Assembly: GCA_012519925.1 (NCBI GenBank)
Contig: JAAYPF010000079.1
Location: forward strand, 1-37,320
Origin: Clostridiaceae bacterium
GTDB taxonomy: Bacteria; Bacillota; Clostridia; Acetivibrionales; Acetivibrionaceae
Reading direction: 5' to 3'
DNA: 37,320 nt
The stretch's first letter is position 1; every line of letters begins with the position of its first letter. Below, piece after piece: positions 4,651-34,713 of this stretch. Below the pieces are notes generated by a model, which did no database searches, had not been told where the DNA came from, and saw nothing but the letters and a program-made list of their open reading frames with translations. Made by a program: the position numbers and the translations under genes.

Positions 4651-4715
4651 AATAAAGCTCGAGGGCATCGAGCCCTTACGTTTTTGCCTCTTTCATTTCA
4701 CTCCAACAGGCGTAA
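4651..4715. repeat. Structured intergenic repeat, copy 1
   Basis: This is the first of four related elements. Stem AGGGC (4662-4666) / GCCCT (4672-4676) is capped by ATCGA and followed by TTACGTTTTTGCCTCTTTCA. It sits between the phosphorylase gene and ahcY, just 3' of the former. The second part of the element is less conserved here than in the copies at 13945 and 34526. The hairpin plus T-run could end or attenuate transcription between the two genes. Confidence 0.75.
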
Positions 4716-4729
4716 TCAGACACCACAAT

Positions 4730-5554
4730 TTATACCGGCCACATATCTATAACTTTTTTTACTACGCAGGTAAAATTCTTTTCGGCCTGTTTAGCAGTTT
4801 GTATAACCTCTTCATGGTTTAAGGGTTGATTTAATATCCCAGATGCCATGTTGGTAATACACGATATTCCCATAACATTCATTCCTGCATGTCTTGCAGC
4901 TATTACCTCCGGCACAGTGGACATTCCTACTGCATCAGCTCCTAAAACATTTAAGGCTCTTATTTCAGAGGGTGTCTCATACATGGGTCCTTTAGCAAAT
5001 ACATAAACACCCTCCTGCATATTAATACCCAATTCCGCCGATGCTTTTTTTAGCAACCCTCTCAATTCTTTACTATAGGCCTCACTCATATCCGGGAAAC
5101 GTGCTCCGAATTCATCAAAGTTTTTACCCCTAAGCGGAGATGGTGCAAATAAGCTGATGTGATCCCTTATAATCATGAGATCTCCAGGACTAAAACATTT
5201 ATTGATTCCACCCGCTGCATTAGTAACAAGTAAATCATTAATACCAAGTAGCTTAAAAACTCGTATAGCTATGACCACTTGTGAAATATCATACCCTTCA
5301 TAATAATGAAAACGTCCTTTCATAGCTATTACAGGCTTATTTCCTATTTTGCCGCACACAAGTTTTCCTTCATGTCCTTCAACTGTTGACAGCGGAAATC
5401 CGGGTATATCTTTATAATCTATCTCAACACTGTTTTTTATATCACCTACAAGAGACCCTAATCCTGAACCTAAGGTAATTGCAATTTGGGGTTCACAATT
5501 TAGTTTACTTTTAATAAATTGGGCTATTTCTTGCAATTTTTCATAGCTATACAT
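4730..5554 (-). CDS. punA: Purine nucleoside phosphorylase, trimeric class I
   Basis: This 274-residue protein catalyses phosphorolysis of purine nucleosides to base plus ribose-1-phosphate. The family signatures are LGSGLGS (phosphate loop), GRFHYYEGY, TNAAGGIN, and YVFAKGPMYETPSEIRAL, whose glutamate contacts the base. CITNMASG carries the asparagine that marks preference for 6-oxopurines (inosine, guanosine); methylthioadenosine phosphorylases differ at that site. Length and start (ATG after GGGAGG) are standard. It is the first gene of the minus-strand group with ahcY and the deaminase. With its 6-oxopurine signature it would act after the deaminase, on inosine or possibly methylthioinosine; the latter is an inference. 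Confidence 0.92.
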   Translation of the reverse strand: MYSYEKLQEIAQFIKSKLNCEPQIAITLGSGLGSLVGDIKNSVEIDYKDIPGFPLSTVEGHEGKLVCGKIGNKPVIAMKGRFHYYEGYDISQVVIAIRVFKLLGINDLLVTNAAGGINKCFSPGDLMIIRDHISLFAPSPLRGKNFDEFGARFPDMSEAYSKELRGLLKKASAELGINMQEGVYVFAKGPMYETPSEIRALNVLGADAVGMSTVPEVIAARHAGMNVMGISCITNMASGILNQPLNHEEVIQTAKQAEKNFTCVVKKVIDMWPV

Positions 5555-5708
5555 AAAATTCCTCCCGACTTTAATATTATACTTATTTTATAAACTTTTT
5601 AAAATAAAATGTATTGTTTTATTTGTTTCTTGAGAACAATAACATATAGACGGCTTATATTCTAATAAAATATATCATAAATAATGGATAAAGAAAAGAA
5701 AAGAAAAC

Positions 5709-5737
5709 TAAAAAAGCTATGTTATTTTTGCATAGCT
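5709..5737 (-). terminator. Terminator of the prkA-yhbH-spoVR operon
   Basis: On the minus strand AGCTATG and CATAGCT (5731-5737 and 5715-5721) form a 7-bp stem around a 9-nt loop, followed by a T-run. It lies about 97 bp after the spoVR stop. The rest of 5555-5833 shows no gene; it contains the upstream region of the phosphorylase gene. Confidence 0.75.
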
Positions 5738-5833
5738 CTTTTAGACGTTTTTATTGAAATAGCTATTGACCAGTCATTTTTTTGTGATCACATTATTGCA
5801 AATCATCTAAAGCACTGTTCTAACCACAATTCT

Positions 5834-7222
5834 TTAGGCATCTGCTAAGGTAATCTTCTTATGTTCATCACAAGCTATTACTTTTCTTTTATTATCAAGC
5901 CTTGTTACTAGCATTACTTTTCCATCCCATAAGTCAACCACATGTTTTAATGTTTCATAAGCATAACCAATATCTAATTCCCTTCCATCATAGTCATGCT
6001 CTAAAATAAGCATATTATCACTTTGTACCCATTCTAGAACTTTTATAACCGGAATACCCGATGTACCTGCACCATTTGCTATTGTATCACGAACTTCCTT
6101 CCATCCATCTTCGTCGGAAACATTTGTTATAACATAATTATTTCCCAGCTTAATATACTCAAAAAGATTCATCTCTTCACACAATTCTCGGGTCAGATAT
6201 CGCCTAATAAACGATTGATCCCTTTCAACTTCTCTCACTTCAAATATTTTCTTCAAGTCTCCGTTATTTTTATTCTTTAGGTCCTCAAAAATTTTAAAAC
6301 CTATATAATAAGGATTAAGTCGACCAAGATGAGGTCTTATAACCTGATTGTGCCTCTTCAAAAATTCTATGTGTAACCCTTGGGGTAAATCCAATTCGTT
6401 TAGAATGGTGTAGTGCCAGAAGCTTGCCCATCCTTCATTCATAATCTTCGTCTCTATTTGAGGAATAAAATAAAGTGTCTCCTCCCTGACAATATTTATA
6501 ATATCTCTTTCCCAACTAGTCAGTTTACCATAGTTTAGTATAAATAAAAGCATATCCTCGTCAGGCTCAAAAGGTATTTTTTTAAAGTCAGGCAACGGTT
6601 CCTCCTCTTTGTTTTTTGGATCTAATAAACGGTATTCATTCTTTGGTTTTGCCAACCTTTTTAAGGCTTCTTGCTTTTTCTGTTCATCAGATATCCTTTT
6701 CTCGCCTATTGTCCTCGATATCTGAAATTTAACCGCATGAGCAGCATTTAAAATCTTCTCCACCCTAGCATATCCAATCCCAGGATCTTGAATATACTCC
6801 CTTATCCTATTTGCATGATTCTTAAACATCTCCACCGTATTTTCTGCCCGAGTACCAAGTTTGAACAGCCTGTTATTTTTAAAGAAATCATTATGGCCAT
6901 ACACATGGGCAATGGTAAGAATTTGCAAAAGCAGTGTATTATCTTTCATTAAATAGGCAAGACATGGATTGGAATTTATAACCATCTCGTAGGGTAACCC
7001 TGTCATATTATACCTATGCAGCGTTTTAGTTCTCTCATAGTGCTTTCCATAGCTCCAATGAGGATAATGGGAAGGCATACCAACATAAGTCTCATACCCA
7101 ATCATATCTTCATAACTGCATATTTCAAATTCTTGTTCATAATAATTAAGCCCAAATTTCTTTGCAATCTCTTCAATTTTTTCATTCCATTCAAGCAACT
7201 CACTCATACTGTAGTCAGCCAT
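5834..7222 (-). CDS. spoVR: SpoVR family protein
   Basis: This 462-residue protein is SpoVR, the homologue of E. coli YcgB. In Bacillus it affects spore cortex formation; its biochemical activity is unknown. The diagnostic N-terminal blocks are present: WNEKIEEIAKKFGLNYYEQEFEICSY, GMPSHYPHWSYGK, YEMVINSNPCLAYLM and AHVYGHNDFFKNN, and further in MNEGWASFWHY and RPHLGRLNPYYIGFKI. Length is normal for the family. ATG follows GGGGGTG with 5-nt spacing. It is the third gene of prkA-yhbH-spoVR, with a 40-nt gap after yhbH, and is followed by a terminator. The same trio (yeaG-yeaH-ycgB) is linked in Proteobacteria as a stress-response set. Confidence 0.95.
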   Translation of the reverse strand: MADYSMSELLEWNEKIEEIAKKFGLNYYEQEFEICSYEDMIGYETYVGMPSHYPHWSYGKHYERTKTLHRYNMTGLPYEMVINSNPCLAYLMKDNTLLLQILTIAHVYGHNDFFKNNRLFKLGTRAENTVEMFKNHANRIREYIQDPGIGYARVEKILNAAHAVKFQISRTIGEKRISDEQKKQEALKRLAKPKNEYRLLDPKNKEEEPLPDFKKIPFEPDEDMLLFILNYGKLTSWERDIINIVREETLYFIPQIETKIMNEGWASFWHYTILNELDLPQGLHIEFLKRHNQVIRPHLGRLNPYYIGFKIFEDLKNKNNGDLKKIFEVREVERDQSFIRRYLTRELCEEMNLFEYIKLGNNYVITNVSDEDGWKEVRDTIANGAGTSGIPVIKVLEWVQSDNMLILEHDYDGRELDIGYAYETLKHVVDLWDGKVMLVTRLDNKRKVIACDEHKKITLADA

Positions 7223-7262
7223 AATTTCACCCCCAGGTCCGGTTATGAATATTAAAGTGCTT

Positions 7263-13652: not shown

Positions 13653-13784
13653 AAAAGCGAGGAGTAATGTGCCATTTAAACCAATGTAGTAGATATCATA
13701 AAATTAGTTAGGTTTAGAAGGGCTTTGGGGTATGTTAGGTAGTCACCTCCGTGCAAGTGCATATTATTTAAAGAACTAAGCTAC

Positions 13785-13853
13785 AAGCCTTAGAGAAGGT
13801 ATTGGTCACTACGGGTCGAATCAAGCTCGCTTCGCCTACATTCTCTAAGGCTT
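13785..13853. repeat. 13-bp perfect inverted repeat with 43-nt interior
   Basis: AAGCCTTAGAGAA (13785-13797) and TTCTCTAAGGCTT (13841-13853) pair perfectly; the interior is GC-richer than its surroundings and holds a smaller stem around GCTCGCTTCGCC. The right arm runs into TTTTCGCG and then TTTTTTC, so it could end transcription of the 234-residue protein gene 133 bp upstream. It could equally be a small repeat element. Confidence 0.6.
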
Positions 13854-13922
13854 TTCGCGATATTTTTTCAATAATATCACTTACACTATTTGTAAGGTGT
13901 ACTTTCTAAATGAAGTTTTGAT

Positions 13923-13946
13923 AAAATCAATGCACTTTCTTAGAAA
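13923..13946. repeat. 24-bp module, first copy
   Basis: The 24 bases AAAATCAATGCACTTT...TTAGAAA are identical at 34690-34713. Here the module directly precedes the structured repeat (copy 2); in the other location it lies about 90 bp after copy 4. Confidence 0.85.
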
Positions 13947-14012
13947 TAAAAACTTCGGGGCATCGAGCCCCTTCGTTTTTGCCTCTTTCACTTCGTTCGA
14001 AAGATGCGTAAT
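13945..14012. repeat. Structured intergenic repeat, copy 2
   Basis: Stem GGGGC (13957-13961) / GCCCC (13967-13971) is capped by ATCGA, followed by CGTTTTTGCCTCTTTCACTT and a second small stem CTTTC/GAAAG. It lies between convergent genes and is followed immediately by a terminator. The stretch from 13653 to 14063 holds no gene; besides this copy it contains the 13-bp inverted repeat and the 24-bp module. Confidence 0.85.
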
Positions 14013-14046
14013 AAAAAAACTCCGTGGTATTCCAGGAGTTTTTTAT
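14013..14046. terminator. Bidirectional terminator between convergent genes
   Basis: AACTCC (14018-14023) and GGAGTT (14035-14040) plus inner TGG/CCA form a strong stem. A-runs precede and T-runs follow it, so it works in both directions. It serves the minus-strand gene ending at 14064 and possibly the plus-strand gene ending at 13652. Confidence 0.85.
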
Positions 14047-14063
14047 ATAAAAATATTAATCTG

Positions 14064-15095
14064 CTATATTTTGCACCTTAAAACACATGCTCTTTTTGAA
14101 CCGATATTCTGCCAATATTCAATATGACCATCATCTTGTCGGAAGTTTTCAAAGGAATAATTGTTCGCTTTTACATATTCGACAATATCTTTAGAGAACA
14201 ACACATCCCAACCTTCTTCTTTTACTGATGGAAGTTTACTGAATGTATACTCATCATATAACTCTCTGTGTTCATTAAACAACATAACCTTATATGTTCT
14301 GCTTGTGTTTTTATAAACCGCATATCCCAATCGGATTTTAATAATATTCTCTAATGCTATATTTCTGTCTTCTATTATCAACTCATGTAATTTCTTGTCA
14401 AGATATAGTATCTTATGGCTATCTAAATAGGTATGCAAAGCTTTTTTGTTATTAATATTCTTAAAATTTTTAAGAGATACTTTAAGAAAATCAGGCTTGT
14501 TATCTTTAAACAATACAATAGTAGCTTCGTCTTTGTTTAGATACCAAACTTCATTTTCATCCATATGTATAACTTCGCCTGACAGATTCTTCTCATTAAA
14601 TATCGGAAACAAGAAAGGTTCGTTATCGAAAAACATGACACGCCTAATACCAACCTCAGTAGCTTCTTTTACTGTAACTGTATAAGGTTCACCCCAGATG
14701 TCGCGGTCAACAATGACCATTCTGCCTGATTCTGTACAATAGATATAATTTTTTTTGTTTGAAAAAACTAAATCTTTTTTATCTACACTTAATACCCTTT
14801 CAAGATTTCTAATCTTATCTTTCTTTAACGAATTTAGAAAACTTGTAGCTTTGTCAGAGTTGACATGTATACTATCTAATATGTTGTCCTTTAGATTTTT
14901 AGGAAAAGCCGATATGCCTTCCTTACTCTTCTCTGACTGCGTGACAGAAGAACCAGCTTTAGTACCCCTATTCTCAGTAACTTCAGCTTGTACTTTGCCC
15001 TTATTCCTTGAATTTGATGATGAAATTAAAAACTCATCCGGAAGTAAATTAATATCTTTCATGGTCACTCTTAAAACGTCTTTTTTATTATCCAT
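14064..15095 (-). CDS. Unrecognised 343-residue protein
   Basis: I do not recognise this protein. It has no signal peptide or membrane segment. The first 95 residues are polar, rich in Ser, Lys and Asn and probably disordered; from about residue 100 the sequence is a mix of strands and helices with many aromatic and charged residues (RMVIVDRDIWGEPYTVTV, MFFDNEPFLFPIF, EVWYLNKDEATIVLF, KILYLDKKLHELII, KVMLFNEHRELYDEY), a repeating rhythm that suggests a beta-rich, possibly propeller-like fold. ATG follows AAGGGGTGG. It stands alone, with its own near-consensus promoter and a terminator, so it is a monocistronic unit. Function unknown; presumably cytosolic. Confidence 0.75.
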   Translation of the reverse strand: MDNKKDVLRVTMKDINLLPDEFLISSSNSRNKGKVQAEVTENRGTKAGSSVTQSEKSKEGISAFPKNLKDNILDSIHVNSDKATSFLNSLKKDKIRNLERVLSVDKKDLVFSNKKNYIYCTESGRMVIVDRDIWGEPYTVTVKEATEVGIRRVMFFDNEPFLFPIFNEKNLSGEVIHMDENEVWYLNKDEATIVLFKDNKPDFLKVSLKNFKNINNKKALHTYLDSHKILYLDKKLHELIIEDRNIALENIIKIRLGYAVYKNTSRTYKVMLFNEHRELYDEYTFSKLPSVKEEGWDVLFSKDIVEYVKANNYSFENFRQDDGHIEYWQNIGSKRACVLRCKI

Positions 15096-22145: not shown

Positions 22146-25100
22146 CTAGCCCTTACCTAAAATCACTTCCACATTGTGCTCCCCTTTATCATTTACAACT
22201 TTGATAATATTTGATGCAAATACCTCTCCGTCTATGGTAACATTTTTAATACCTCTATTTATACCTTCAGGATTCTTTATCGAAATATTATATAGTGTGT
22301 CTTTATACTTATATTTTATGTCAAAGCCTGTCCATTCCTTAGGTATGCATGGATCTATAATTAAACTCTCCCCATTCTTTTTAAAGCCTAGAATGTATTC
22401 AATTCCAATCCTATACATCCAACCTGCTGCTCCAGTGTACCACGACCAGCCACCTCGACCTATATGAGGTTCTACTGAATAGACATCGGCCGAAACTACA
22501 TAGGGTTCTACCTTGTATTTTGAAAGTTCTATATGTGTTTTTGCGTGATTAATAGGGTTTAGTAGGTCAAACAGTTCTGTGGCTTTATCACCATCTCCTA
22601 ACAGGGCAAAGGCCATAACAACCCAACAGGCTGCATGAGTATATTGTCCTCCATTTTCACGTACTCCAGGTACATAACTTTTTATATAACCGGGTTCTAA
22701 ATCTCCTTCATCAAAAGGAGGCGTAAGTAATTTAATAAGGCCCTCATCCCTTTTAACAAGGTAATTTTCCAACGCATTCATTGCAACATTGATTCTATCC
22801 TTGTCACCGGCACCGGATATAACAGCCCAAGACTGAGCAAGGGAATCAATCTGACATTCACTGTTCTGAATAGAACCAAGGGGTTGTCCGTTGTCAAAAT
22901 AGGCTCTTCTGTACCAGTTTCCATCCCAGGCATTCTCCTCAATGGACTTAACAACTTCTTTTGCAACAGTAGAATACCTATTTGCTCGCTCTTCTTCCCC
23001 CATAGTTCTACAAAGGGGAGCAAATTTCATCAAAATTGAATGTAGGAACCAACCCAACCAAACACTCTCACCTCTGCCCTTATTGCCAACAGTATTCATT
23101 CCGTCATTCCAATCTCCAGAACCAATAAGCGGAAGCCCATGTTCTCCAAATTTCAGTGATCTTTCAATAGCCCTTATGCAATGATCGTAAAGGGTTGATT
23201 TCACCTCTGATACTCTTGGAATCCTATAGCTTTCATCTTCAAAATCCTTTAAAGGCTCATCTTCAAGAAACGGAGTTTCTATTTTTAGTATATCAATATC
23301 ACCAGTACTCCTTATATACTCAGCTGTTATATAGGGCATCCATAAGAGGTCATCGGAAAATCTCGTTCTTGTGCCCTTATATTTTTCTTCATGCCACCAA
23401 TGTTGTACATCCCCTTCAAGGAATTGATGCTTCGAATGAAGTAAAATCTGTGCTTTGGTGATTTCCGGTAATATATGAACCACAGAAATACTATCCTGCA
23501 GTTGGTCCCTAAATCCGTATGCTCCACCAGATTGATAGAATCCAGATCGGGTCCACATCCTGCACGATAAAACCTGATACATAAGCCATCCATTTAACAT
23601 ATAGTCCATTGCCTTATCCGGAGTATAAACCTGGAGGCTTTCAAGTTTTTCTCTCCAAAATTCCTTTATACCATTAAGTGCCTTTTTTACTTCTTCTATT
23701 TTTCTATACTTGCCTATATTTCTTTCAACTTCTGTAAGTTTTTTCTCCTCTCCTAACGTGAAAGCTAGCTCCTTTTCTTCGCCGGGCTTAAATTCTAGGA
23801 CTACACCTAAAACTACACAGGGATCTAAGCCCGCTCCTACAGCTTCAGACAGCTTTACTCTTCTTATTCCAGGAGGATTTTTCAAGGTTCCGCCTGCTAA
23901 AAATTCTCTTCTGTCACAGGTAAAAGTTCTTTCTCTTATGGATACATCAACATAAGCTACTCTACCTGTAAACTCTTCATTATAAGTATTTCTTATAAGT
24001 ATAGCTCCCGACTCATGCTTTTCGGTACTTATATAAGAAGCAGTGGACTGATCATTCACACCAAGTACGGGGCGGATGTAATAGTATAAACTCAATTTCC
24101 TAGACGATTCACTTGTGTTTTTTAGTTTTATCAAGCTCAGCTTTAAACTATCCTCCACTGGCACAAACTGAGTTAATTCTTGATCAAATCCATGACTTGA
24201 ATTGCTAAAAACACTATATCCAAATCCATGTACTGCCAAATAAGTTTCATCCTCTCGTATCGGCAAAGCAGTAATGCTCCATATTTCCCCCGTAGCATCA
24301 TCGGAAACATAGATAATTTCACCGGGTATGTCGGACACTGGATCATTAGACCATGGAGTCAGCTTGTTCTCACGACTATTTTCATGCCATGTGTATCCTC
24401 CTCCGGATTCTGTTACGATAAATCCAAACTTTTGGTTAGATATTACATTAGACCAGGGTACAGGAGTACTGATCCCGCTCTTTAGCACAATTTCATATTC
24501 TTTCCCACCATCTCTAAAGCCGCCGATACCATTGTAAAACTGCATATCAGGACTTTCAACATATTTATTTTCATACTTTTTAATATCCTCATTATATTCC
24601 TTCAATTGGGGCATATTATTATCCTTTTTGACAAAAAGCTGTTCTCCCAAATCACCGGCACTACCTCTGAGTATTACCCGAGCCGCTGCACATATCAAAT
24701 TGATATCTTCCTTTGGAAGAGAACTCTGTTTAAGGACAAAAACTCCACCGGGTTTATTTATCATATCATGAGCATGGCTTGACGAAAGAATATCAGCTAA
24801 CAATCCCTGTAAAGGATTAGTATAGCTATTTTCCTCCTCATTTAGTATCACAAGATCTACTTTTAGATTCTTATATTTCCAATACTCATGAGCCTTTAAT
24901 ATGTCATAAACTATATCGATATCACCGGTTTTTTCCAATGTTACAAGTATTATGGGTATATCTCCTGATATACCATAAGACCACAATGCACTTTGACCTT
25001 TGATATTATTTATAATACAATCCCTCTTAAGCCTTTGTGCTGGGCTTATGAACAGTATATGCGATATAAGCTCCTGATAAAGTTCAATCTCAGAAGCTTT

Positions 25101-28100
25101 AAGATTCAAATATCTTGCCTCCACACGGCTTCTAGTTGTAGCAAGATTAAACTCTTCAGGTATAATATCCTTATTTATATATTTAGCAGCCATATCCAAT
25201 ACTGCTTCTCGACTCTCTCCAACTCCGACTATAAGGTTTAATTTAGCACTCTTTCCTGGCTCTATTTTTATCATACACCTCATGCTCATAATAGGGTCAA
25301 GAACCGCTCCAACAGTATTTGACAACGGTTTACTTTGTTCAAGAACTAGAGGATTAGATACATCTCGTCCCCTACCAATAAATTTGAAACGATCGGTTTC
25401 ATATTGCAGCCCACCTAATGACTCACCTTCTATAGTCAACAGATTTAACGACCACATAGTTTTATCGTTTTCAGATCGAGGTCTTCTGTTGGCTATCAGA
25501 CAATTTAGTTCAGGAACAAACTCTGTTCTTATAAATAAATTGCTAAAAGCAGGATGTGCAACATCAGCATCTTGCTGTGCTATGACCAGCTCATAATAAC
25601 TGCTGACTTCAAGTACACAAGGCTCATCTCCATGATTCATAAAAGTTACTCTTCTTATTTCTGCATTGTCACCAGAACTTACTACTATTTCGGTTACTGT
25701 GTCAATATCTTCATCCTTCCTATGGAATTTTGCCATTCCTGAAGTAAACACAACATTATACATTTCTGGTCTTTTGTCTATTGATGCATAAGTTGAACAC
25801 CATGTTGTATTTGTATTAGTGTTTCTTATATAAAAGAATATTCCGTAATTATCTAGAGCAAGGTCTTCTCTCCAACGGGTTATTGCAAAATTATTACTTC
25901 TACTATATCCAGTTCCCTTATCGGTAACCATTACGGAATAACTTCCGTTGGATAAAATATGAGCTTTGGGCAGTAAATAATCGGGTGCATCGTATTCCCT
26001 GTAAGAATCCTCAACATCAAAGGTAAGGTCGGTAAAGGGCGTAATTTTTTCCTTATTTTCCTTAGTAAACAAAATGTTTACAGGCACCTTTTCTTGAAGA
26101 AGAAGTTTGGCTGCATCTACTACCGGATCATTATGAAAGCGGTTTTGCATTACGTTCCCATTTAAATAGTTGTTAAGGGCAAGCAAACTCATTCCCTGAT
26201 GATGAGCCATATAGCTCTTTACAACACCGTATTTCGATCCTATAGGTAGTCTTTCGGGCGTATAATCTACTGCCTCATAGTATCCGTAAGGTCCGTCTGC
26301 TCCTTCTGCTGTCAATCTCTTTAAATTTCTAACAGCATCGTGGGGGTCAATGGGTAGTGCAAGCATAGTGGAATAAGGTGCAACCACCATGTCCTCCGCC
26401 AATCCCCTCTTCAGCCCAAGCCACGGAACACCAAAGGCTTTATACTGATAGTCCAGCCTAATATCAAAGGAATAAAATCCCGACTCGGAAGTTCCCCAAG
26501 GCACATTCCTCTGTTTTGCATACTTTTTTTGGCTTCTCAGCACAAAGGAATAAGTCTCGTCCAATAAAGTGTTTTTGACACTTTTCATTATAAGTAAAGG
26601 CATTAAATATTCAAACATTGTCCCGCTCCAAGATATCATACCCTTATAGCGGTCTATCCTAGTAAGAGTTCTGCCCAATCTAAACCAATGCTGAACATCA
26701 ACTTCTCCTCTTGCTATAGCAATAAAGCTTGTCTTTCTTGCCTCTGAAGCAAGTAAATCATAGTATGAGTTTGTCAAACTACTCTCTTCTATATTATAAC
26801 CGATTGAAAATAGCTGCTTTTTATTATCATATAGATGAATAAATTCGGTTTCGCAGGATAATTTATCAATCCGGTCTACTAAATAAATATAATTTGAAAT
26901 GAGCTGTTCTACATTTTGAAGTGATTTTTCCAACTCATGTTTTAATCTGTCCAGCCAATTTTTTATATTTACATAGCCGCTCTCTTTACTTTTTGCAATA
27001 ATTCTATTAAGCCTATCTATTTCTACCTTTAGCTTTCTATAATGTTCTGGCAGTTGTTGCAAGGAAACATTTGCCTTAAACATATCAAATATAGCCACTT
27101 TAGTCTTTTCAAAACCATTTTTGTAAGAACCCTTTTTTAATTCTTCAGGAATTTCAAACAACAAATGACTCCAAGAATAGTAGTTACTCAGTTCATCTTT
27201 GAAGAGCGAAACCATTTGGTCAACTTTACGAGCCCAGATATTCAACTTTTTGTCTTTATTCCTTTGGTTATCTCCAAGTAAGTCTAATGCTCTAACCCAA
27301 AGAGTTAAATCAAAATTATCTGCTTTATCAAAGCTAGAGGCAAAGTTTTCAAGTTGGTCAACATCATAGCTACTTCCATTTATCTCCTTATTACATAGAT
27401 TAATCGTATCTTTTAATCCGTCAACATATACCTTTTCAATAAGAGGTCTGTTTAAATACTCAACAAGCCCCTCTTTCAATGTGATAAGATAGCATACAAA
27501 GTTTCCACTGTCTACAGTCGAGATATATCTAGGTCTTAATGTATCGAGAGTGCGTGTATCATACCAGTTATAAAGGTGACCATTCCACTTGTCCATCTTT
27601 TCAATGGTACTTACTGTCCGTTTTATTATCTTGTACATTTCATCGGTGCCTATATAACCAAAGTCCCTTGCACTTAGAGCCGCCAACATACCAAGCCCTA
27701 TATTTGTCGGTGAAGTCCTGTGTGCAATTCCATTTGGCGGGTCTTCTTGATAGTTGTCCGGAGCCAAATAATTATTCCTATTGTCTACGAACTCTTCATA
27801 ATATCTCCAAGTTTTTCTGGCCGTCACTCTAAGTTCGAGTAACTCTTCTCCACTCAAAGGCTCAATGGATTTTACCTTTTCCTGACTCACCTTAAAAGCT
27901 ATATATGGTGAAACAAACCATGCTACGCATACTATCATAACCGGTATAGCCGATTGAGGTTTTAAAAATAATGCCAGTACAAAAACTATAACCGATTGAA
28001 AAACACCTATTTTCATCTTTATAATATAGCTTTTCAAAGAGTTCTTAAGTGCCTTTTCCGTATCTAGGGCAGTAACCCATTCGAGCATATTTCTTTTGGT

Positions 28101-30914
28101 TATACAAACCCTCGCCAATGTAATTGAAATTGCATTTACCATAAGATATGCCTGATAGGGTAAAAATACAAATTGCAATGTAATTTGTAAAAAGGCCGCT
28201 TTCAACCCGCAAATAACAGGTATATACCTTCTAGAAAGCATTACTCTAAGAGGTTTGTATACCAGATAGTCAAACCCCGATAAAACAAACGGAAAGTAGA
28301 TAAATAGCAGAAGAAGCCCTATCCACATCAAAGTATTTCCGGGAAATATACTAAAGCCAAAAGCAGAAAGTAGCATAAGGGCAGGGGCAACAAGACTTCT
28401 TCTGAGATTGTCAATTATTTTCCATTTTGAGACAGCAGTTATAGGATTTTTTATCTTATTGCCTTTTTTATTCCTTATTCTACCACCAAGCCATTGTAAT
28501 AACTGCCAATCTCCCCTCACCCAACGATGAAGTCTCATGGCATAGGAATTATACTTTGACGGATATCCGTCAATTAACTCAAGATCACTTACCAGACCCA
28601 CTCTTATATATGAGCCTTCAAGTAAATCGTGGCTAAGTATGGTGTTTTCAGGTATTGCGTCTGCCAATACTTTTTGAAACACATCAATATCATATATACC
28701 TTTTCCTGTGAATATACCTTCTCCAAATAAATCCTGATAAACATCAGATACAGCACTAGCATAAGGATCTCTTCCTTCTTCACCGGCAAAAATCCTCGAA
28801 AACAGGGACTTATTTACACTTTCTATATCAAATCCTATTCTTGGTTGCATCAACCCATAACCTCTAACCACAATACCTTTTTCCTCGTCTATATGTGGTA
28901 AGTTTAATGGGTGTATCATAGTCCCAACAAGTTTCTTAGCAGTACCTAAAGGCAGTACAGTATCCGCATCTAGTGTAATAACATACTTCACCTTAGGCAA
29001 AAGAGATATATCCTTCGAAGTTATACTATAGCTTGTCTTTCTTGAACCTAAAAGCATATCGTTGAATTCCATGAGAGCTCCTCTTTTACGCTCCCAACCC
29101 ATCCACTTTTTCTGTCTGTCATTAAACTGCCTATGTCTGTTAAAAAAATAGAAAATATCTTTTTCACCCTTAGAGTACTTCTTGTTTAGTTCACGGACCC
29201 TATCAATAGCTATTTTTATTATTTGGCTGTCACCAGGCATATCCTTACTGTCTGAATCCTTATAATCTCCCGCAAGGGCAAAGAACAAATTGTTTTCCCT
29301 ATTTGAAAGATAGTATTTCTCAAGGTTGTCAATTAATTCCCTAGCCCTATTCTCATCGGGGAGCAATGCGGGAATAACTACCATGGTACTATACTCTTCG
29401 GGGATACCTTCTTTTAATTCAATCCTCGGGAAAAATGAAGGCTTGAATAAATGGTTCAGTATCCAGTTAATAAAGTTTACTGAAATATCAGTGGCAGGTA
29501 TAAATAGTACTAAAATACCTATTAAAGCAAGTAGTGTATTATACTTTTGTGCTTCCCTAAATATATACTGGGCAATCAGTAAACTTATTAAAATAGTCAA
29601 TATACCCACAGAACCGACATAGAAAATAAGAGGTCTACTTTTTATGAAATCCGTGCATATTTTACCAAAGGTTTTCTTAACTCCTATCTCCTCTCTAAGT
29701 TGATTAATACCTTCATCTATAATATAGTAACCCACATGGCATTCCTTACTGTAATTTGCATCGCTTAGATCTTCTTTATCTTCTAGTGCTCTTCTTGCAA
29801 GTTCAACTACCTTGCTAGCTACATGCTTTTCCGAAACATCAAATTCTAATGCTAATTGCTCCACTCTTTTCCTATAAATATTTTTTGATGATAGATCCAT
29901 AATATTGTATATTCCACTTGGATCAGACCTTAGTATGCTCTCTAATTTGCTTAGCTCCTCAAAAACATTTACCCAATTACTTGAAGAAATATATTTAAGA
30001 CTAATTATGCAGTTGCCTATTGACCCCTTTCTTGCAGTTTGCTCACTATGCTCTTTATGGGTAATGTAATCTATATTTGTACCATTTATATCAAGAATAT
30101 CGTCAACTTGACGAAGAACATGGGCACAAGACCTTCCCATTTTTCTAAGTCTATAAGCTAAATGTTCAATAAAAGTGGAATTAATTTTGTACTCTCCCTT
30201 AAGTTCAGCTCTAATGGCTTGAATAAGCTTACCCGAGTCAATACCATTCTCACCTTTTGCAAAGGAAATTATATCTTCTACCTTGCGTCTTTGCTTTTGG
30301 GACTCTTCAATTGTCTGACATATATATCTGATATTTTCAATAAGTGCAAGCTTAAGCATTATAGCTAATGCCCACAGTTCCCTGCTCGCAAGAACCTTGT
30401 GGGATTGATAAGCATTAATATAATTGATGAGTATTTTTTCATCAATCCTGCCATCGGTATGTGATACAAGTTCAAGGGCAACGGTATATATCCTCGCATA
30501 TCCTTTTAACGGACCGGAACGTAGCATTGGAAGCTTTGAGTAATACTCCTTGCTTAGATCTTTCCTCACACCCTTTACCTGCTCCTCAATAATATAAAAA
30601 TTATCAAGAAGCCACTCAGCAGCAGGCGTTGTTCCAATTCCCTTCTGCATATCTTCATTTAAAGACTTATATATCGATAATATATACCGATAGTTTTCAT
30701 TCATTCTTGGAACAGGCCAATTAAAAAGATTAAGCTTTTTAGAGACAGCATGATCGTAGGCTATCTCTATAGCATGAGCTTCAAGCTCATCAGCATTTAG
30801 TGAGGCATCCCTTATTTTAATTTTTTCCTCTTTTGATTTTAATTGTATTAGCCAAAAAGCAAAAACGAATAAAATCAGAACAGCAATTAAATATAAAATT
30901 ATGTAATCATGCAT
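22146..30914 (-). CDS. Cyclic beta-1,2-glucan synthase-like giant enzyme (GT84 + cyclisation domain + GH94)
   Basis: A 2922-residue membrane enzyme of the NdvB/ChvB type. An N-terminal anchor (about 4-24) is followed by a soluble region, two membrane segments near 425-480, and a family-84 glycosyltransferase domain with VVIPALLPDE, the metal-binding ITLDADT near 648, SHDLLEGSYIRVG and RLHRWVRGDWQLLQW near 795. More membrane segments follow (about 840-1010). The middle region has a glycoamylase-like part with YMAHHQGMSLLALNNYL near 1570, the portion now assigned to cyclisation (GH189). The C-terminal third is a GH94 phosphorylase module with YGFRDQLQDS, WWHEE, and SGDWNDGMN near 2600 carrying the expected catalytic Asp. 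Known homologues polymerise UDP-glucose into beta-1,2-glucan, trim it and close the ring. The ATG has CAGGAG 14 nt upstream, a wide gap. Confidence 0.93.
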   Translation of the reverse strand: MHDYIILYLIAVLILFVFAFWLIQLKSKEEKIKIRDASLNADELEAHAIEIAYDHAVSKKLNLFNWPVPRMNENYRYILSIYKSLNEDMQKGIGTTPAAEWLLDNFYIIEEQVKGVRKDLSKEYYSKLPMLRSGPLKGYARIYTVALELVSHTDGRIDEKILINYINAYQSHKVLASRELWALAIMLKLALIENIRYICQTIEESQKQRRKVEDIISFAKGENGIDSGKLIQAIRAELKGEYKINSTFIEHLAYRLRKMGRSCAHVLRQVDDILDINGTNIDYITHKEHSEQTARKGSIGNCIISLKYISSSNWVNVFEELSKLESILRSDPSGIYNIMDLSSKNIYRKRVEQLALEFDVSEKHVASKVVELARRALEDKEDLSDANYSKECHVGYYIIDEGINQLREEIGVKKTFGKICTDFIKSRPLIFYVGSVGILTILISLLIAQYIFREAQKYNTLLALIGILVLFIPATDISVNFINWILNHLFKPSFFPRIELKEGIPEEYSTMVVIPALLPDENRARELIDNLEKYYLSNRENNLFFALAGDYKDSDSKDMPGDSQIIKIAIDRVRELNKKYSKGEKDIFYFFNRHRQFNDRQKKWMGWERKRGALMEFNDMLLGSRKTSYSITSKDISLLPKVKYVITLDADTVLPLGTAKKLVGTMIHPLNLPHIDEEKGIVVRGYGLMQPRIGFDIESVNKSLFSRIFAGEEGRDPYASAVSDVYQDLFGEGIFTGKGIYDIDVFQKVLADAIPENTILSHDLLEGSYIRVGLVSDLELIDGYPSKYNSYAMRLHRWVRGDWQLLQWLGGRIRNKKGNKIKNPITAVSKWKIIDNLRRSLVAPALMLLSAFGFSIFPGNTLMWIGLLLLFIYFPFVLSGFDYLVYKPLRVMLSRRYIPVICGLKAAFLQITLQFVFLPYQAYLMVNAISITLARVCITKRNMLEWVTALDTEKALKNSLKSYIIKMKIGVFQSVIVFVLALFLKPQSAIPVMIVCVAWFVSPYIAFKVSQEKVKSIEPLSGEELLELRVTARKTWRYYEEFVDNRNNYLAPDNYQEDPPNGIAHRTSPTNIGLGMLAALSARDFGYIGTDEMYKIIKRTVSTIEKMDKWNGHLYNWYDTRTLDTLRPRYISTVDSGNFVCYLITLKEGLVEYLNRPLIEKVYVDGLKDTINLCNKEINGSSYDVDQLENFASSFDKADNFDLTLWVRALDLLGDNQRNKDKKLNIWARKVDQMVSLFKDELSNYYSWSHLLFEIPEELKKGSYKNGFEKTKVAIFDMFKANVSLQQLPEHYRKLKVEIDRLNRIIAKSKESGYVNIKNWLDRLKHELEKSLQNVEQLISNYIYLVDRIDKLSCETEFIHLYDNKKQLFSIGYNIEESSLTNSYYDLLASEARKTSFIAIARGEVDVQHWFRLGRTLTRIDRYKGMISWSGTMFEYLMPLLIMKSVKNTLLDETYSFVLRSQKKYAKQRNVPWGTSESGFYSFDIRLDYQYKAFGVPWLGLKRGLAEDMVVAPYSTMLALPIDPHDAVRNLKRLTAEGADGPYGYYEAVDYTPERLPIGSKYGVVKSYMAHHQGMSLLALNNYLNGNVMQNRFHNDPVVDAAKLLLQEKVPVNILFTKENKEKITPFTDLTFDVEDSYREYDAPDYLLPKAHILSNGSYSVMVTDKGTGYSRSNNFAITRWREDLALDNYGIFFYIRNTNTNTTWCSTYASIDKRPEMYNVVFTSGMAKFHRKDEDIDTVTEIVVSSGDNAEIRRVTFMNHGDEPCVLEVSSYYELVIAQQDADVAHPAFSNLFIRTEFVPELNCLIANRRPRSENDKTMWSLNLLTIEGESLGGLQYETDRFKFIGRGRDVSNPLVLEQSKPLSNTVGAVLDPIMSMRCMIKIEPGKSAKLNLIVGVGESREAVLDMAAKYINKDIIPEEFNLATTRSRVEARYLNLKASEIELYQELISHILFISPAQRLKRDCIINNIKGQSALWSYGISGDIPIILVTLEKTGDIDIVYDILKAHEYWKYKNLKVDLVILNEEENSYTNPLQGLLADILSSSHAHDMINKPGGVFVLKQSSLPKEDINLICAAARVILRGSAGDLGEQLFVKKDNNMPQLKEYNEDIKKYENKYVESPDMQFYNGIGGFRDGGKEYEIVLKSGISTPVPWSNVISNQKFGFIVTESGGGYTWHENSRENKLTPWSNDPVSDIPGEIIYVSDDATGEIWSITALPIREDETYLAVHGFGYSVFSNSSHGFDQELTQFVPVEDSLKLSLIKLKNTSESSRKLSLYYYIRPVLGVNDQSTASYISTEKHESGAILIRNTYNEEFTGRVAYVDVSIRERTFTCDRREFLAGGTLKNPPGIRRVKLSEAVGAGLDPCVVLGVVLEFKPGEEKELAFTLGEEKKLTEVERNIGKYRKIEEVKKALNGIKEFWREKLESLQVYTPDKAMDYMLNGWLMYQVLSCRMWTRSGFYQSGGAYGFRDQLQDSISVVHILPEITKAQILLHSKHQFLEGDVQHWWHEEKYKGTRTRFSDDLLWMPYITAEYIRSTGDIDILKIETPFLEDEPLKDFEDESYRIPRVSEVKSTLYDHCIRAIERSLKFGEHGLPLIGSGDWNDGMNTVGNKGRGESVWLGWFLHSILMKFAPLCRTMGEEERANRYSTVAKEVVKSIEENAWDGNWYRRAYFDNGQPLGSIQNSECQIDSLAQSWAVISGAGDKDRINVAMNALENYLVKRDEGLIKLLTPPFDEGDLEPGYIKSYVPGVRENGGQYTHAACWVVMAFALLGDGDKATELFDLLNPINHAKTHIELSKYKVEPYVVSADVYSVEPHIGRGGWSWYTGAAGWMYRIGIEYILGFKKNGESLIIDPCIPKEWTGFDIKYKYKDTLYNISIKNPEGINRGIKNVTIDGEVFASNIIKVVNDKGEHNVEVILGKG

Positions 30915-31107: not shown

Positions 31108-31181
31108 AATAAAAACTCCAGGACATCGAGTCCCTCTGTTTTAACCTCTTTCACTTCATTCATAAAGAGGTTAAAAAAAAG
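31108..31181. repeat. Structured intergenic repeat, copy 3
   Basis: Stem GGAC (31121-31124) / GTCC (31130-31133) is capped by the same ATCGA as in the other copies, so the stem has changed on both sides while the cap has not. The second part forms a much longer hairpin here: TTTTAACCTCTTT (31139-31151) pairs perfectly with AAAGAGGTTAAAA (31164-31176). Either part could end transcription coming from the methyltransferase gene at 31364. Confidence 0.85.
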
Positions 31182-31255
31182 AAAACCATAAATTTCAAGG
31201 TTTTCCTAATAAGTCAGGTTATTTATTATGCTTTATTTAGGCTCTTTTTAAACCC

Positions 31256-31299
31256 CAGCATAGGAATTTACAAAAATAGTTTTTATAAATCCCTATGCT
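31256..31299. repeat. 44-bp near-perfect palindrome
   Basis: AGCATAGG at the left pairs with CCTATGCT at the right, and after one mismatch the stem continues through ATTTA and AAAAA to a TAG loop, giving about 18-20 pairs with two mismatches. An A-run follows on the plus strand. The right arm recurs in modified form at about 34506-34525, just before copy 4. It may be a terminator of the methyltransferase gene or a small mobile palindrome. Confidence 0.75.
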
Positions 31300-31363
31300 A
31301 AAAAAAGTAGATAATGTATAAACCTGTTTTAGTGTCAACAGTACAACAATTTTAATTTTTTAT

Positions 31364-32167
31364 TTATTGCTTCCTTCTGTACCTTAGTACTTCATATATT
31401 AAAAGACCTGCTGCTACCGATGCATTTAGCGATTCGCTTTTTCCCTCCATAGGTATCTTTACCAATTCATTTGAAATAGCCGAAACACTGTCACTAATTC
31501 CATTTGCCTCATTTCCAACAATAATTGCAATATTATCCTTGTAAGCTAAATCATAATAGCTTTTACTTCCGTTAAGATGTGCTGCACAAAGTGTTATGCC
31601 TTTGTCTTTTAGACTCTGAAGCGTTTGTAGTATATCTTCACAATAACAAATAGGTAGATGAAATATCGAACCCATGGTAGACCTTAATACTTTAGGGTTA
31701 TATACATCAACACATCCTTTGGATACTATTACAGCAGTAGCACCAGCTGCATCTGCCGTTCTAATTATTGTACCCATATTCCCAGGATCCTGTATGGAAT
31801 CTAAAACAACAAAAAAGTTTTTATTATCATAAACCTCTTCAATGTCTACTGACTTTTTACTCAGAACAGCAAGTATGCCCTGGGGGTTCTCAGTATCTGT
31901 AACCTCCATATAAAGCTTGTTTGGAACTGTATAAATATCACAGCAATTGCTTTCTTTTAACCGTTTAAGTATATCACTTCCACCTTTTGCCTCTGTCAGT
32001 TTATCCGATATAAGTATTTTAGCTATTACTTCTTTTTCCTTTATTGCTTCTTCAATAAATCTTATACCTTCAATAAAAAATAAACCTTTTTGCTCCCTAT
32101 ACTTCTTTTCTTTTAAAGCTTTTATTTCTTTAATCACTTGATTTTGTCCACTGCTTATAAAGTTCAC
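31364..32167 (-). CDS. SPOUT-class (TrmH/SpoU) RNA 2'-O-methyltransferase
   Basis: This 267-residue protein is a TrmH-family RNA methyltransferase that uses SAM to methylate a ribose 2'-OH, probably in 23S rRNA. The N-terminal part KEIKALKEKKYREQKGLFFIEGIRFIEEAI is the L30e-like RNA-binding substrate domain. The catalytic SPOUT knot has motif 1 VVLDSIQDPGNMGTIIRTADAAGA with the key Arg, motif 2 IIVGNEANGISDSV, and motif 3 IPMEGKSESLNASVAAGLLIYE. Length is typical of the family member found next to ribosomal genes in Firmicutes. It follows rplT after 125 bp with a terminator-like hairpin between. The target nucleotide cannot be deduced from sequence. Confidence 0.92.
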   Translation of the reverse strand: MNFISSGQNQVIKEIKALKEKKYREQKGLFFIEGIRFIEEAIKEKEVIAKILISDKLTEAKGGSDILKRLKESNCCDIYTVPNKLYMEVTDTENPQGILAVLSKKSVDIEEVYDNKNFFVVLDSIQDPGNMGTIIRTADAAGATAVIVSKGCVDVYNPKVLRSTMGSIFHLPICYCEDILQTLQSLKDKGITLCAAHLNGSKSYYDLAYKDNIAIIVGNEANGISDSVSAISNELVKIPMEGKSESLNASVAAGLLIYEVLRYRRKQ

Positions 32168-32186
32168 TATATCACCTCAACCACAG

Positions 32187-32231
32187 TTTTAACTCTTTCA
32201 CTTCATTTGAAACGGGAATAACAAAAAATAT
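32187..32231. repeat. Partial copy of the structured repeat
   Basis: TTTTAACTCTTTCACTTCAT followed by TTGAAACGGGAATAACAAAAA resembles the second half of the full copies (CTCTTTCACTTCGTTCGAAAG...). The ATCGA-capped hairpin is missing, so this is a fragment or an independently evolved relative. Confidence 0.5.
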
Positions 32232-32258
32232 AAAACAGCCCTAATCTCCTTAACATTA

Positions 32259-32283
32259 AAAAAGAGCCTTAACGGCCCCTTCT
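32259..32283 (-). terminator. Terminator of infC-rpmI-rplT operon
   Basis: On the minus strand AGGGGCC, loop GTTAA and GGCTCT pair, with G-U pairs in the lower stem, and are followed by a run of T residues. It stands just 10 bp after the rplT stop codon. Confidence 0.7.
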
Positions 32284-32292
32284 ATTAATTGT

Positions 32293-32646: not shown

Positions 32647-32663
32647 AACTCTTTCCCTCCTTC

Positions 32664-32861
32664 TTACTTATATGGAATTAACATTTTAATAGTCGCTGCA
32701 TCAGCATCCGATACAATCGTTGATTTTCTCAAGTTTCTTGTTCTCTTAGTAGTCTTCTTTGTCAAAATATGCCTCTTGAAAGCTTTTGCTCTCTTTACTT
32801 TTCCTGTACCAGTTAAACTAAATCTCTTTTTAGAAGAACTGTGAGTTTTTATTTTTGGCAT
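32664..32861 (-). CDS. rpmI: Ribosomal protein L35
   Basis: A 65-residue basic 50S protein. [47 protein letters not shown] is the classical L35 sequence pattern and the length is exact for the family. It begins 28 bp after infC with AAGGAGGAAAC before the ATG, and it is followed by rplT at 17 bp. Gene order infC-rpmI-rplT is the usual one in Firmicutes. Confidence 0.98.
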
Positions 32862-32889
32862 CGTATGTTTCCTCCTTATCTAATCTATA

Positions 32890-33405: not shown

Positions 33406-33419
33406 AAAAAACACCTCCG

Positions 33420-33579
33420 GGTAAATTTACAGTTTTGTGTTAACAAACGCAAAATAGTGGATCAAAGAACCGATCCACTTAACTACTAATAAGCAAAGTT
33501 AAAAATTTAACCTTAGACTATTAACCTTACCAGAAGCAACCCGTAAGGTGAGAAGTGGATGACTTCTTCTTTATTACAC
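33420..33579 (-). promoter_or_regulatory. infC leader with attenuator (L20-leader type)
   Basis: On the minus strand the leader contains hairpins GAAGT/ACTTC (33552-33566), ACCTTAC/GTAAGGT (33524-33530 with 33543-33549), a small AT stem (near 33500-33513), and a strong terminator-like stem AGTGGATC/GATCCACT (33456-33463 with 33472-33479) followed by ATTTT. The segment ATCCACTT in the first hairpin (33553-33560) is perfectly complementary to AAGTGGAT, the 5' arm of the terminator (33473-33480), so an alternative antiterminator can form. In Bacillus the infC leader is controlled by L20 through transcription attenuation. I cannot show L20 binding from sequence. Confidence 0.75.
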
Positions 33580-33585
33580 CGTTTT

Positions 33586-33614
33586 ATCCTATCAGAAATT
33601 TTGCATAATGTCAA
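33586..33614 (-). promoter_or_regulatory. Promoter of the infC operon
   Basis: Minus-strand TTGACA (33609-33614) and TAGGAT (33586-33591) with a 17-bp spacer. Transcription would start near 33579 and give a leader of about 175 nt. It lies just beyond the thyX stop, so infC is transcribed independently of thyX. Confidence 0.85.
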
Positions 33615-33676
33615 TTACTTTTTTTATTTTGTTTATAATATAAATTGCAAGTTAAAGTGATATGATATCATAAAAC

Positions 33677-34312
33677 TCAACAATCTATGTCATCAAAAAC
33701 TACAGGTATCATCTCTTTGAACTTATTTAACAAAGGTATTGCAATCTCCCTCATCTGAGGATGAGATGCTTTAGCTACTCTCAGTTTAAAAAAATGTCTC
33801 CATTCTCTTAAGTTCATAGTCATAACAAGCTCTGTCTTGAGCGAATTAGGAAGAATACTCCTTGCCTCCTGTGGTGTCGCACCCGCTTCTAACAATTCCA
33901 TATATTTTTGCTCTGTATATTCCATTACATTTTTCCAAATTTCATACTTCTTCTTTCCCTCTTCGGTAGAAGTATCCCAAAAACATGGCTCAATATATGT
34001 TATTTGATTTGAAAACTTGTCCTTACTGTAATTACAATATCTAGTGCTCTCCTGAGAATATGAGGCAATCCTATGTCTTACTATTTCGTGGGTTATACCT
34101 CTATCACATACTATTTTAACAGTAATGGAATAGTGCTCAATGACGGCCTCATGCCCATTTTTAATAATCTTTCTTACAAAATCCGCTGCAGAGTTGTCTG
34201 TGACCTTATCTTCACTTTTATAACATACCCTTCCTGCCTTTTCAATATGTTTTAGTATTTCTTCTCCATTAACATCTGACTCTATAACAAAATACGGCTT
34301 AATTACGATCAT
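33677..34312 (-). CDS. thyX: Flavin-dependent thymidylate synthase
   Basis: ThyX converts dUMP to dTMP with methylene-tetrahydrofolate and FADH2, replacing classical ThyA. The signature RHRX7S is present as RHRIASYSQES followed by TRY, and the downstream EARSILPNSLKTELVMTMNLREWRHFFKLRVAKASHPQMREIA block is typical of the family. The frame extends to a GTG five codons upstream, but GGAG lies 9 nt before the ATG at 34312, which gives 211 residues, a normal length. It is a single gene between thrS and the infC operon. No ThyA is visible in this window. Confidence 0.96.
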   Translation of the reverse strand: MIVIKPYFVIESDVNGEEILKHIEKAGRVCYKSEDKVTDNSAADFVRKIIKNGHEAVIEHYSITVKIVCDRGITHEIVRHRIASYSQESTRYCNYSKDKFSNQITYIEPCFWDTSTEEGKKKYEIWKNVMEYTEQKYMELLEAGATPQEARSILPNSLKTELVMTMNLREWRHFFKLRVAKASHPQMREIAIPLLNKFKEMIPVVFDDIDC

Positions 34313-34525
34313 TAATCTCAGCTCCACTCCTATATTAGTTTATGTATTACCCTTTAAAATCTTATCATATATTTGGGCTAAATAATAGTAGTAGAAATGA
34401 AATATAAAACAACCAAAACTTTCTAAAAGTAAATGAAGTTTAGAATACTAAAAATAATGCATAGCTCTTTTTTCTGCAATAAAATAGTGTAAGGACGGCA
34501 GGATTTTTATAAATTCCTATACTCA

Positions 34526-34600
34526 ATAAAAACTACGGGACATCGAGTGCCTACGTTTTTGCCTCTTTCACTTCGTTCGAAAGAAGCGGAACAAAGGGGG
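34526..34600. repeat. Structured intergenic repeat, copy 4
   Basis: Stem GGGAC (34538-34542) / GTGCC (34548-34552) with ATCGA cap has one mismatch. It is followed by TACGTTTTTGCCTCTTTCAC, then TTCGTTCGAAAGAAGCGGAA. Apart from the hairpin stem it is nearly identical to copy 2 over 50 bases. Confidence 0.85.
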
Positions 34601-34689
34601 CTACGCCCCGTTTAAACCCCGCATGGTACACTTTTACACTTCTTTTGAAAGCCTTGCGTCTTCTGCGACTCAAGGTTTTATTTTTTTAG

Positions 34690-34713
34690 AAAATCAATGC
34701 ACTTTCTTAGAAA
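34690..34713. repeat. 24-bp module, second copy
   Basis: Identical over 24 bases to 13923-13946, in the same orientation but in a different position relative to the structured repeat. Confidence 0.85.

What the first reader, a model, noticed from the sequence alone, without database searches (positions are those of the whole stretch)
4651..34713. Mosaic family of structured intergenic repeats with a constant ATCGA-capped hairpin
Four full copies (4651, 13945, 31108, 34526) and a fragment (32187) all lie between genes and in the same orientation. Each begins with a hairpin whose ATCGA cap is constant, while the stem changes on both sides (AGGGC/GCCCT, GGGGC/GCCCC, GGAC/GTCC; the fourth has one mismatch). 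That is the pattern expected when an RNA or cruciform structure is kept. Each full copy lies 3' of a minus-strand gene. Other shared modules (a 24-mer at 13923 and 34690, a TTTAAACCCC-GCAT piece at about 31246 and 34612, and one arm of the 44-bp palindrome) occur around them in different orders. This looks like a modular element that is reshuffled, not simple duplication. A plain bidirectional terminator that spread is the main alternative.
Basis: partly seen in the sequence, partly recalled or inferred. Interest (0 to 1): 0.6.

Follow-up and report, generated by a model that had tools for sequence, protein, structure and literature searches.

The report
Mobile hairpin repeats stacking on terminators
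The repeats are copies of a tiny mobile DNA element, about 65 bases and two hairpins long, that inserts right behind the stop signals of bacterial genes, carries a stop-signal-like hairpin of its own, and can therefore pile up in rows.

Summary
Six of thirteen same-family genomes (Acetivibrio and allies) carry 50-101 matches; a few relatives lie elsewhere in the order. The unit, about 63-66 bp, is A-tract / hairpin H1 (ATCGA cap) / T-tract / hairpin H2. H2's outer end abuts a gene's intrinsic terminator: a strong hairpin starts there in 87 of 110 single copies here (controls 12-22 of about 108) and 72 of 80 copies in four other species (controls 8-14 of 80). At six sites a relative has the same terminator without the element, so it is an insertion behind the terminator's T-tract. 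One terminator holds 0, 1 or 2 units in three species. H1 with its T-tract looks like a terminator itself, so each copy offers a new target, which would explain head-to-tail arrays. The 'reshuffled modules' read better as separate repeat families beside it. What moves it is unknown: neither Y1 transposase nor reverse transcriptase genes were found in every high-copy genome. I found no description in the library searched.

The parts
13945..14017 (+). Best-scoring copy of the element (AATAAAAAC-H1-GTTTTT-H2-GTAATAAAAA). In gene sense (minus strand) it reads H2 then H1
   Evidence: (103.1 bits, top of the list; it was also in the model)
13948..13980 (+). Hairpin H1: A5C/GT5 outer stem, 3x3 internal loop, GGGGC/GCCCC inner stem, ATCGA cap; terminator-like on both strands
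13981..14007 (+). Hairpin H2: GCCTCTTTC / 9-nt loop / GAAAGATGC
14014..14044 (-). Intrinsic terminator of the minus-strand ORF 14064-15095, behind whose T-tract the copy sits
31108..31180 (+). Full copy; the corresponding terminator lacks it in a same-genus species (G002)
31181..31207 (-). Terminator-like hairpin (AAAACC/GGTTTT with A8 tract) of the minus-strand ORF 31364-32167
34525..34597 (+). Full copy (one mismatch in the H1 stem), lying next to the hairpin GGGGGCTACGCCCC of another repeat family
4650..4721 (+). Full, diverged copy, about 8 bases beyond the stop codon of the minus-strand ORF 4730-5554; no separate terminator hairpin was detected here
32187..32228 (+). Fragment: H2 part only, H1 missing; not in the list of 147 model matches
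34601..34715 (.).
13700..13941 (.). Separate repeat region (partial relatives near several other copies); not part of the element

Best explanation
A non-autonomous mobile repeat of about 63-66 bp that homes to intrinsic transcription terminators. In the sense of the terminated gene the arrangement is [gene]-[its terminator hairpin]-TTTTT-ATTAC-H2-AAAAAC-H1-GTTTTTATT. SHOWN: the element mostly lies directly behind the T-tract of a predicted terminator in a fixed orientation, relatives carry the same terminators without it, and it forms head-to-tail arrays with a period of about 64 bp. INFERRED: (1) H1 with its flanking A5 and T5 works as a bidirectional terminator, so an insertion does little harm and the far end of each copy is a new target, which lets copies stack; (2) the ATCGA cap of H1 and the hairpin H2 are recognition parts for a factor acting in trans; (3) that factor is unknown.
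For: Adjacency: with the first 122 of 147 matches, 110 without a following tandem unit, a hairpin of score >=16 starts at the H2 end in 87 of 110; controls 45-75 nt further out 22/109, 18/107, 12/107; H1 side 21/110. Folding profile: 75 % of 110 at the junction against 8-16 % from 10 nt outward and 4-9 % on the H1 side. Replication in four other species: 72/80 against 14, 12 and 8 of 80, H1 side 14/81. Orientation: the H2 side faces an ORF's 3' end in 97 of 116 copies with a neighbour, the H1 side in 46 of 115. Empty sites with the same terminator at six places: L054:1515 in G004 and G008, L097:2821 array in both, L078:2150 and L078:3824 in G008, L085:2394 array with 0, 1 and 2 units in G008, G004 and A. 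straminisolvens, and the window's own copy 31108 in G002. Arrays: 16 neighbouring same-strand pairs, 58-80 and mostly 63-67 bp apart; 4 of 16 join the two subfamilies, and in 9 of 16 at least a quarter of random pairs are as alike, as expected from repeated insertion; the other 7 look like duplications. Recent activity: 18 of 45 A. straminisolvens cores identical (copies chosen by a pattern). Terminator position kept in 7 of 10 diverged relatives read, 3 of 5 outside the family (no shifted control was run for these ten).
Against: No enzyme has been tied to it: PF01797 (Y1) gave no match in G002 and G013, PF00078 (reverse transcriptase) none in G006 and G010, all four with 50 or more copies. 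23 of 110 copies had no hairpin of that score at the H2 end, among them the window's 4650. The exact insertion point and any target duplication are unresolved: the flanking TTTTATT could be element or target, and matching flank triplets were only mildly in excess (32 of 61 against 25.4 expected). Some array pairs are plainly duplicated units. Two of ten site comparisons show a counterpart in a relative (L097:464, L085:4694). Termination by H1 is read from its anatomy, not measured. Within this genome H2 shows little covariation. The cap is not absolute: 31 of 147 matches lack it within one mismatch, and two G001 loci read ATCCA and GTCGA.
Confidence: 0.78

Rival explanations
1. A functional 3'-end element (reinforcing terminator, insulator or RNA stabiliser) kept in place by selection at particular genes, not a mobile element.
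For: Strong structure (z -6.3, gene terminator included), bidirectional terminator anatomy, intergenic 3'-end location; a copy can be inherited: L097:464 has a partly deleted counterpart in G004 and L085:4694 one in G004.
Against: Same terminators without the element at six sites; 0 or 1 match in G003, G008, G009, G011, G012 (G011 is only 55 % complete); array size differs between species; many identical copies in one species.
Confidence: 0.12
2. A REP/REPIN-like repeat moved by a RAYT or IS200/IS605-type Y1 transposase acting on single-stranded hairpins.
For: Short intergenic hairpins, no terminal inverted repeats, clusters; Y1 genes in 9 of 14 family genomes; IS608-type elements are flanked by imperfect palindromes that the transposase recognises (passages of PMC3116915). 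In G010 one element lies about 0.9 kb from a RAYT-length (270 aa) Y1 gene (L316).
Against: No PF01797 match in G002 (100 % complete) or G013 (87 %), both rich in copies. Of 11 loci with a Y1 ORF of 203-291 aa read with about 0.8-2 kb of flank (L124, L316-L318, L321-L326, L328), 1 has an element, not clearly above what such copy densities give by chance (my estimate, no call). Of the other Y1 loci read, L327, L319 and L320 have elements at 1.5, 2.7 and 4.7 kb, but these contigs were chosen because they hold both; L121 has a sub-threshold match (E 0.13). 30 loci with 32 of the 48 Y1 matches were read in all. Units lie in direct, not inverted order; no invariant GTAG tag.
Confidence: 0.25
3. A satellite of a group IIC intron or another reverse transcriptase, copied from RNA and inserted at terminators as group IIC introns are.
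For: Same target: group IIC introns insert at intrinsic terminator motifs (PMC4424553, passages). The A-tail/T-tract junction would suit priming. In the own genome 29 matches keep H2 without a recognisable H1 cap and 12 the reverse, some looking cut at the H1 end.
Against: No PF00078 match in G006 and G010, with 50 and 72 matches (G010 is 90 % complete); no group II intron family hit in the window or in six element loci; no element at E<=0.5 in the 12 reverse-transcriptase loci held, of 66 matches; many of the 29 are merely diverged caps, not truncations.
Confidence: 0.15
4. A mosaic element whose modules are reshuffled.
For: Several repeats do occur together in the window.
Against: The H1-H2 unit is kept in 104 of 147 matches by a simple motif rule, while the other blocks are separate families found near only a few copies.
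Confidence: 0.04

Closest known systems
REP / BIME / REPIN repeats with RAYT (TnpA-REP) transposases
   Same: Short, numerous, intergenic, hairpin-forming, clustered, species-specific variants
   Different: Here a direct two-hairpin unit, not inverted REP pairs; no invariant GTAG tag; placed behind intrinsic terminators; no consistent link to a RAYT found
Group IIC (class C) introns
   Same: Target: intrinsic terminator motifs (PMC4424553, passages)
   Different: No ribozyme family hit, no reverse transcriptase, 65 bp; carries its own terminator-like end
MITEs of bacteria (e.g. RUP, Correia/NEMIS; features recalled)
   Same: Small non-autonomous mobile repeats
   Different: No terminal inverted repeats, no clear target duplication, target is a structure
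Uptake-sequence terminators of Haemophilus/Neisseria (recalled; mentioned in passages of PMC2267715)
   Same: Repeated sequence associated with terminator hairpins
   Different: There the repeat forms the terminator stem; here it is added behind a gene's own terminator

Membership tests
REP/REPIN | Associated RAYT/Y1 transposase in the genome | tested here: not met
   No PF01797 match in G002 and G013, both with 50 or more copies; G013 is 87 % complete
REP/REPIN | Repeats beside the RAYT gene | tested here: inconclusive
   1 of 11 loci with Y1 ORFs of 203-291 aa has an element, 0.9 kb away; 32 of 48 Y1 matches read
REP/REPIN | Conserved GTAG (or CGTC) tag at the hairpin foot | tested here: not met
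   The corresponding bases vary (TAC, TCC, TTC, GAA) among copies
REP/REPIN | Inverted pair of REPs as mobile unit | tested here: not met
   Array units are direct: 16 same-strand pairs 58-80 bp apart, against 3 opposite-strand neighbours within 200 bp
MITE | Terminal inverted repeats | tested here: not met
   Ends read directly: AATAAAAAC... and ...GCGTAAT are not inverted repeats of each other
MITE | Target-site duplication | tested here: inconclusive
   Possible AAAT at L097; flank match 32 of 61 against 25.4
Group IIC intron or derivative | Insertion behind an intrinsic terminator | tested here: met
Group IIC intron or derivative | Group II ribozyme domains | tested here: not met
   No Rfam intron match in the window (gathering) or in six element loci (E<=1)
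Group IIC intron or derivative | Reverse transcriptase available in the genome | tested here: not met
   No PF00078 match in G006 and G010; present in 10 of 14 family genomes
Intrinsic terminator | Hairpin followed by T-tract | tested here: met
   H1 with T5 on both strands
Intrinsic terminator | Terminates transcription in vivo | not testable with these tools
   No RNA 3'-end data on hand
Any Rfam RNA family | Match at gathering score | tested here: not met
   Only T-box and L20 leader in the window, neither at a copy

The most novel reading that the evidence does not exclude
A class of minimal 'terminator-homing' elements that spreads without any dedicated transposase or reverse transcriptase of a known family, recognised through the H1 cap, using the site where transcripts end as its integration signal and supplying a fresh terminator with every copy, so that it is self-stacking and nearly harmless.
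Probability: 0.3. Interest if true: 0.85.

Novelty: new variant of a known kind. Interest (0 to 1): 0.62.

Why it matters
An element that selects intrinsic terminators and ends in a terminator-like hairpin of its own would be a clean example of a parasite choosing a harmless niche and rebuilding it, and it could create back-up terminators at many gene ends. The six empty sites and the 0/1/2-unit site make the insertion rule directly testable, and the split pattern of Y1 and reverse-transcriptase genes sets a clear puzzle: what moves it.

Tried and rejected
Rejected: known Rfam RNA (a permissive scan of six element loci gave a T-box at one locus, away from the copy, and five hits far below their families' thresholds). 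Association with Y1 or reverse-transcriptase genes did not hold in all high-copy genomes. A simple target-duplication test was inconclusive. A possible larger carrier element shared by C142, C167 and C241 was compared: the shared stretches are about 80-160 bp at 77-80 %, so not a clear autonomous version. H2 covariation within this genome was weak for class A and partial for class B, where two loop classes may be mixed. In the count on the 37-sequence alignment one pair (9-32) was mis-set by me by one column. Site L054:3823 could not be aligned beyond the gene, and at L054:1089 the terminator itself differs between species, so neither is counted as an empty site; window 34525 and 32187 lack a recognisable copy in G001 and G002 but without a clearly conserved terminator.

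Literature: eight searches (one search gave no paper), of which I saw listings; passages were seen in five papers. Nothing describing this element was found; most subscription journals are not in that library.

Rows dropped: analyses of own copies used the first 122 of 147 matches; 12 of these were left out of the H2-side test and 10 to 12 of the H1-side test as tandem neighbours or short flanks; two that stayed in (C46, C63) are in fact followed by a further unit and count as misses. In one search, 88 of the 92 matches were entered and 80 and 81 tested. In one search copies with fewer than 4 of 5 cap letters were left out, so the constancy of the cap there is partly by selection. Five of the six matches outside the family were read. 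ORFs are mechanical.
Full report
What is there. One copy used as a DNA query gives 55 matches in the window's own genome. A covariance model built from 37 copies gives 147 at E<=0.1, with at most 150 candidates scored. The window is one whole contig (C200) of a 253-contig genome of 3.9 Mb.

Anatomy. H1 has an A5C/GT5 outer stem, a 3x3 stretch that is usually unpaired but sometimes fully paired (for example C207), a five-pair inner stem and the cap ATCGA. H2 is a nine-pair stem with a 9-nt loop (class A) or a shorter stem with a loop of about 12 nt or less (class B); by a simple rule 94 and 28 of the first 122 copies fall in A and B. Folded in gene sense, the best copy and its neighbour terminator form three hairpins in a row (z -6.3); H1 alone, on the other strand, gives z -3.0.

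H1 structure is kept. Among 172 distinct H1 sequences the pair next to the cap has 13 both-side changes (shuffled maximum 9) and the next pair 62 (maximum 40), with 154 of 172 paired at the latter against a shuffled maximum of 134; the next three pairs show no excess. Copies were admitted if 4 of 5 cap letters matched, so the cap's constancy there is partly selected, and relatedness makes shuffles optimistic. By another rule 31 of 147 matches lack the cap, and two G001 loci read ATCCA and GTCGA. In relatives from G010, G045 and G047 the cap stays while H2 has a different sequence that can still pair.

Where it sits. The H2 end faces an ORF's 3' end in 97 of 116 copies with a neighbour (6 of 122 had none), the H1 end in 46 of 115. 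Directly at the H2 end a strong hairpin begins: 87 of 110 (score >=16) against 22/109, 18/107 and 12/107 at positions 45-75 nt further out and 21/110 on the H1 side; an energy profile gives the same picture. In A. straminisolvens, A. mesophilus, A. alkalicellulosi and the MAG DTU079, 72 of 80 against 14, 12 and 8 of 80, and 14 of 81 on the H1 side. So the rule is: gene, its own terminator hairpin, T-tract, then the element with H2 first.

It moves. Contig lengths identify G013 as A. straminisolvens, G004 as A. mesophilus, G006 as DTU079 and G005 as A. alkalicellulosi; G008 has the length I recall for A. thermocellus ATCC 27405. At six places a relative has the same terminator but no element: L054:1515 (G004, G008), the two-unit array L097:2821 (G004, G008), L078:2150 and L078:3824 (G008), L085:2394 (G008) and the window's 31108 (G002). 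At L085:2394 the three species hold 0, 1 and 2 units. Results the other way: L097:464 and L085:4694 have counterparts in G004, and G008 seems to hold a decayed remnant at the latter, so older copies are inherited.

Arrays. Sixteen neighbouring same-strand pairs lie 58-80 bp apart. Four join class A with class B. In nine of sixteen at least a quarter of random pairs are as alike; seven are clearly more alike. Both repeated insertion and duplication seem to act. Since H1 followed by TTTTT is itself a hairpin with a T-tract, insertion behind it follows the same rule as insertion behind a gene's terminator. This last step is inference.

Distribution. Model matches at E<=0.001 (150 candidates scored per genome): G000 133, G013 101, G004 92, G005 87, G010 72, G002 51, G006 50, G007 8, G001 5, G008 1, G011 1, none in G003, G009, G012 (14 genomes). 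In the order search, 13 of 58 genomes matched at E<=1e-4; outside the family only G047 (3), G045 (2) and G033 (1). Of ten diverged loci read, seven have a terminator-like hairpin at the same place; of the five outside the family, three. No control was run for these ten.

What moves it. Y1 transposase genes (PF01797) occur in 9 of 14 family genomes but gave no match in G002 or G013. Reverse transcriptases (PF00078) occur in 10 of 14 but gave none in G006 or G010. I read 30 loci holding 32 of 48 Y1 matches and 12 loci of 66 reverse-transcriptase matches. Among 11 Y1 loci of RAYT-like length one, in G010, has an element 0.9 kb away. Three further Y1 contigs, chosen because they hold both, have elements 1.5-4.7 kb away, and L121 a sub-threshold match. 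The reverse-transcriptase loci have none. The ends of the element are not inverted repeats. So no known machinery is assigned; draft genomes (G013 87 %, G010 90 % complete) leave room for missed genes.

The other modules. The block 34601-34715 has three further copies at 96-98 % and a weaker one among the fetched regions, the region 13700-13941 has several partial relatives, and the palindrome at 31257-31299 has short relatives. These regions were fetched because they hold the element, so co-occurrence counts are biased. They are separate repeats.

What is known. Group IIC introns insert at intrinsic terminators (PMC4424553, passages; the original paper was not held). REPIN and GTAG-repeat papers (PMC3116915, PMC3733652; passages) describe other tags and inverted pairs; the main text of the latter holds no 'clostrid' or 'terminator'. 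RepRanger (PMC12306157, passages) names Acetivibrio clariflavus once, in a table of counts. The stem-loop family survey (PMC2267715, passages) covers Clostridium perfringens and C. tetani. None of the passages seen describes this element.

Noticed in passing
window 34601-34715; L204, L152, L128: A 115-bp repeat at 96-98 % identity, next to a hairpin GGGGGCTACGCCCC at one end and with the 24-mer AAAATCAATGCACTTTCTTAGAAA at the other; perhaps a second, young mobile repeat family.
   Followed up: partly
window 31257-31299 and 34503-34523; L144, L194, L222: A short palindromic repeat (about TTTATAAATTCCTATACT) with relatives in other fetched regions.
   Followed up: partly
window 1433-1519: Direct repeats of a CCWTACC-like motif in 10- and 15-base steps.
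   Followed up: no
window 22146-30914: A single ORF of 2922 aa on the minus strand, by its look a very large carbohydrate-active enzyme; no family search was run.
   Followed up: no
window 36737-36918 and 33443-33577: T-box leader and ribosomal L20 leader, both on the minus strand.
   Followed up: no
L223, L227, L232 near 1400-1640: Three loci share about 80-160 bp (77-80 %) around a copy of the element, possibly another repeat that contains it.
   Followed up: partly
L316 1023-1096 and about 2004-2339 (G010:C292): An element 0.9 kb from a RAYT-length Y1 transposase gene; a lead for the mobilising enzyme in that genome.
   Followed up: partly
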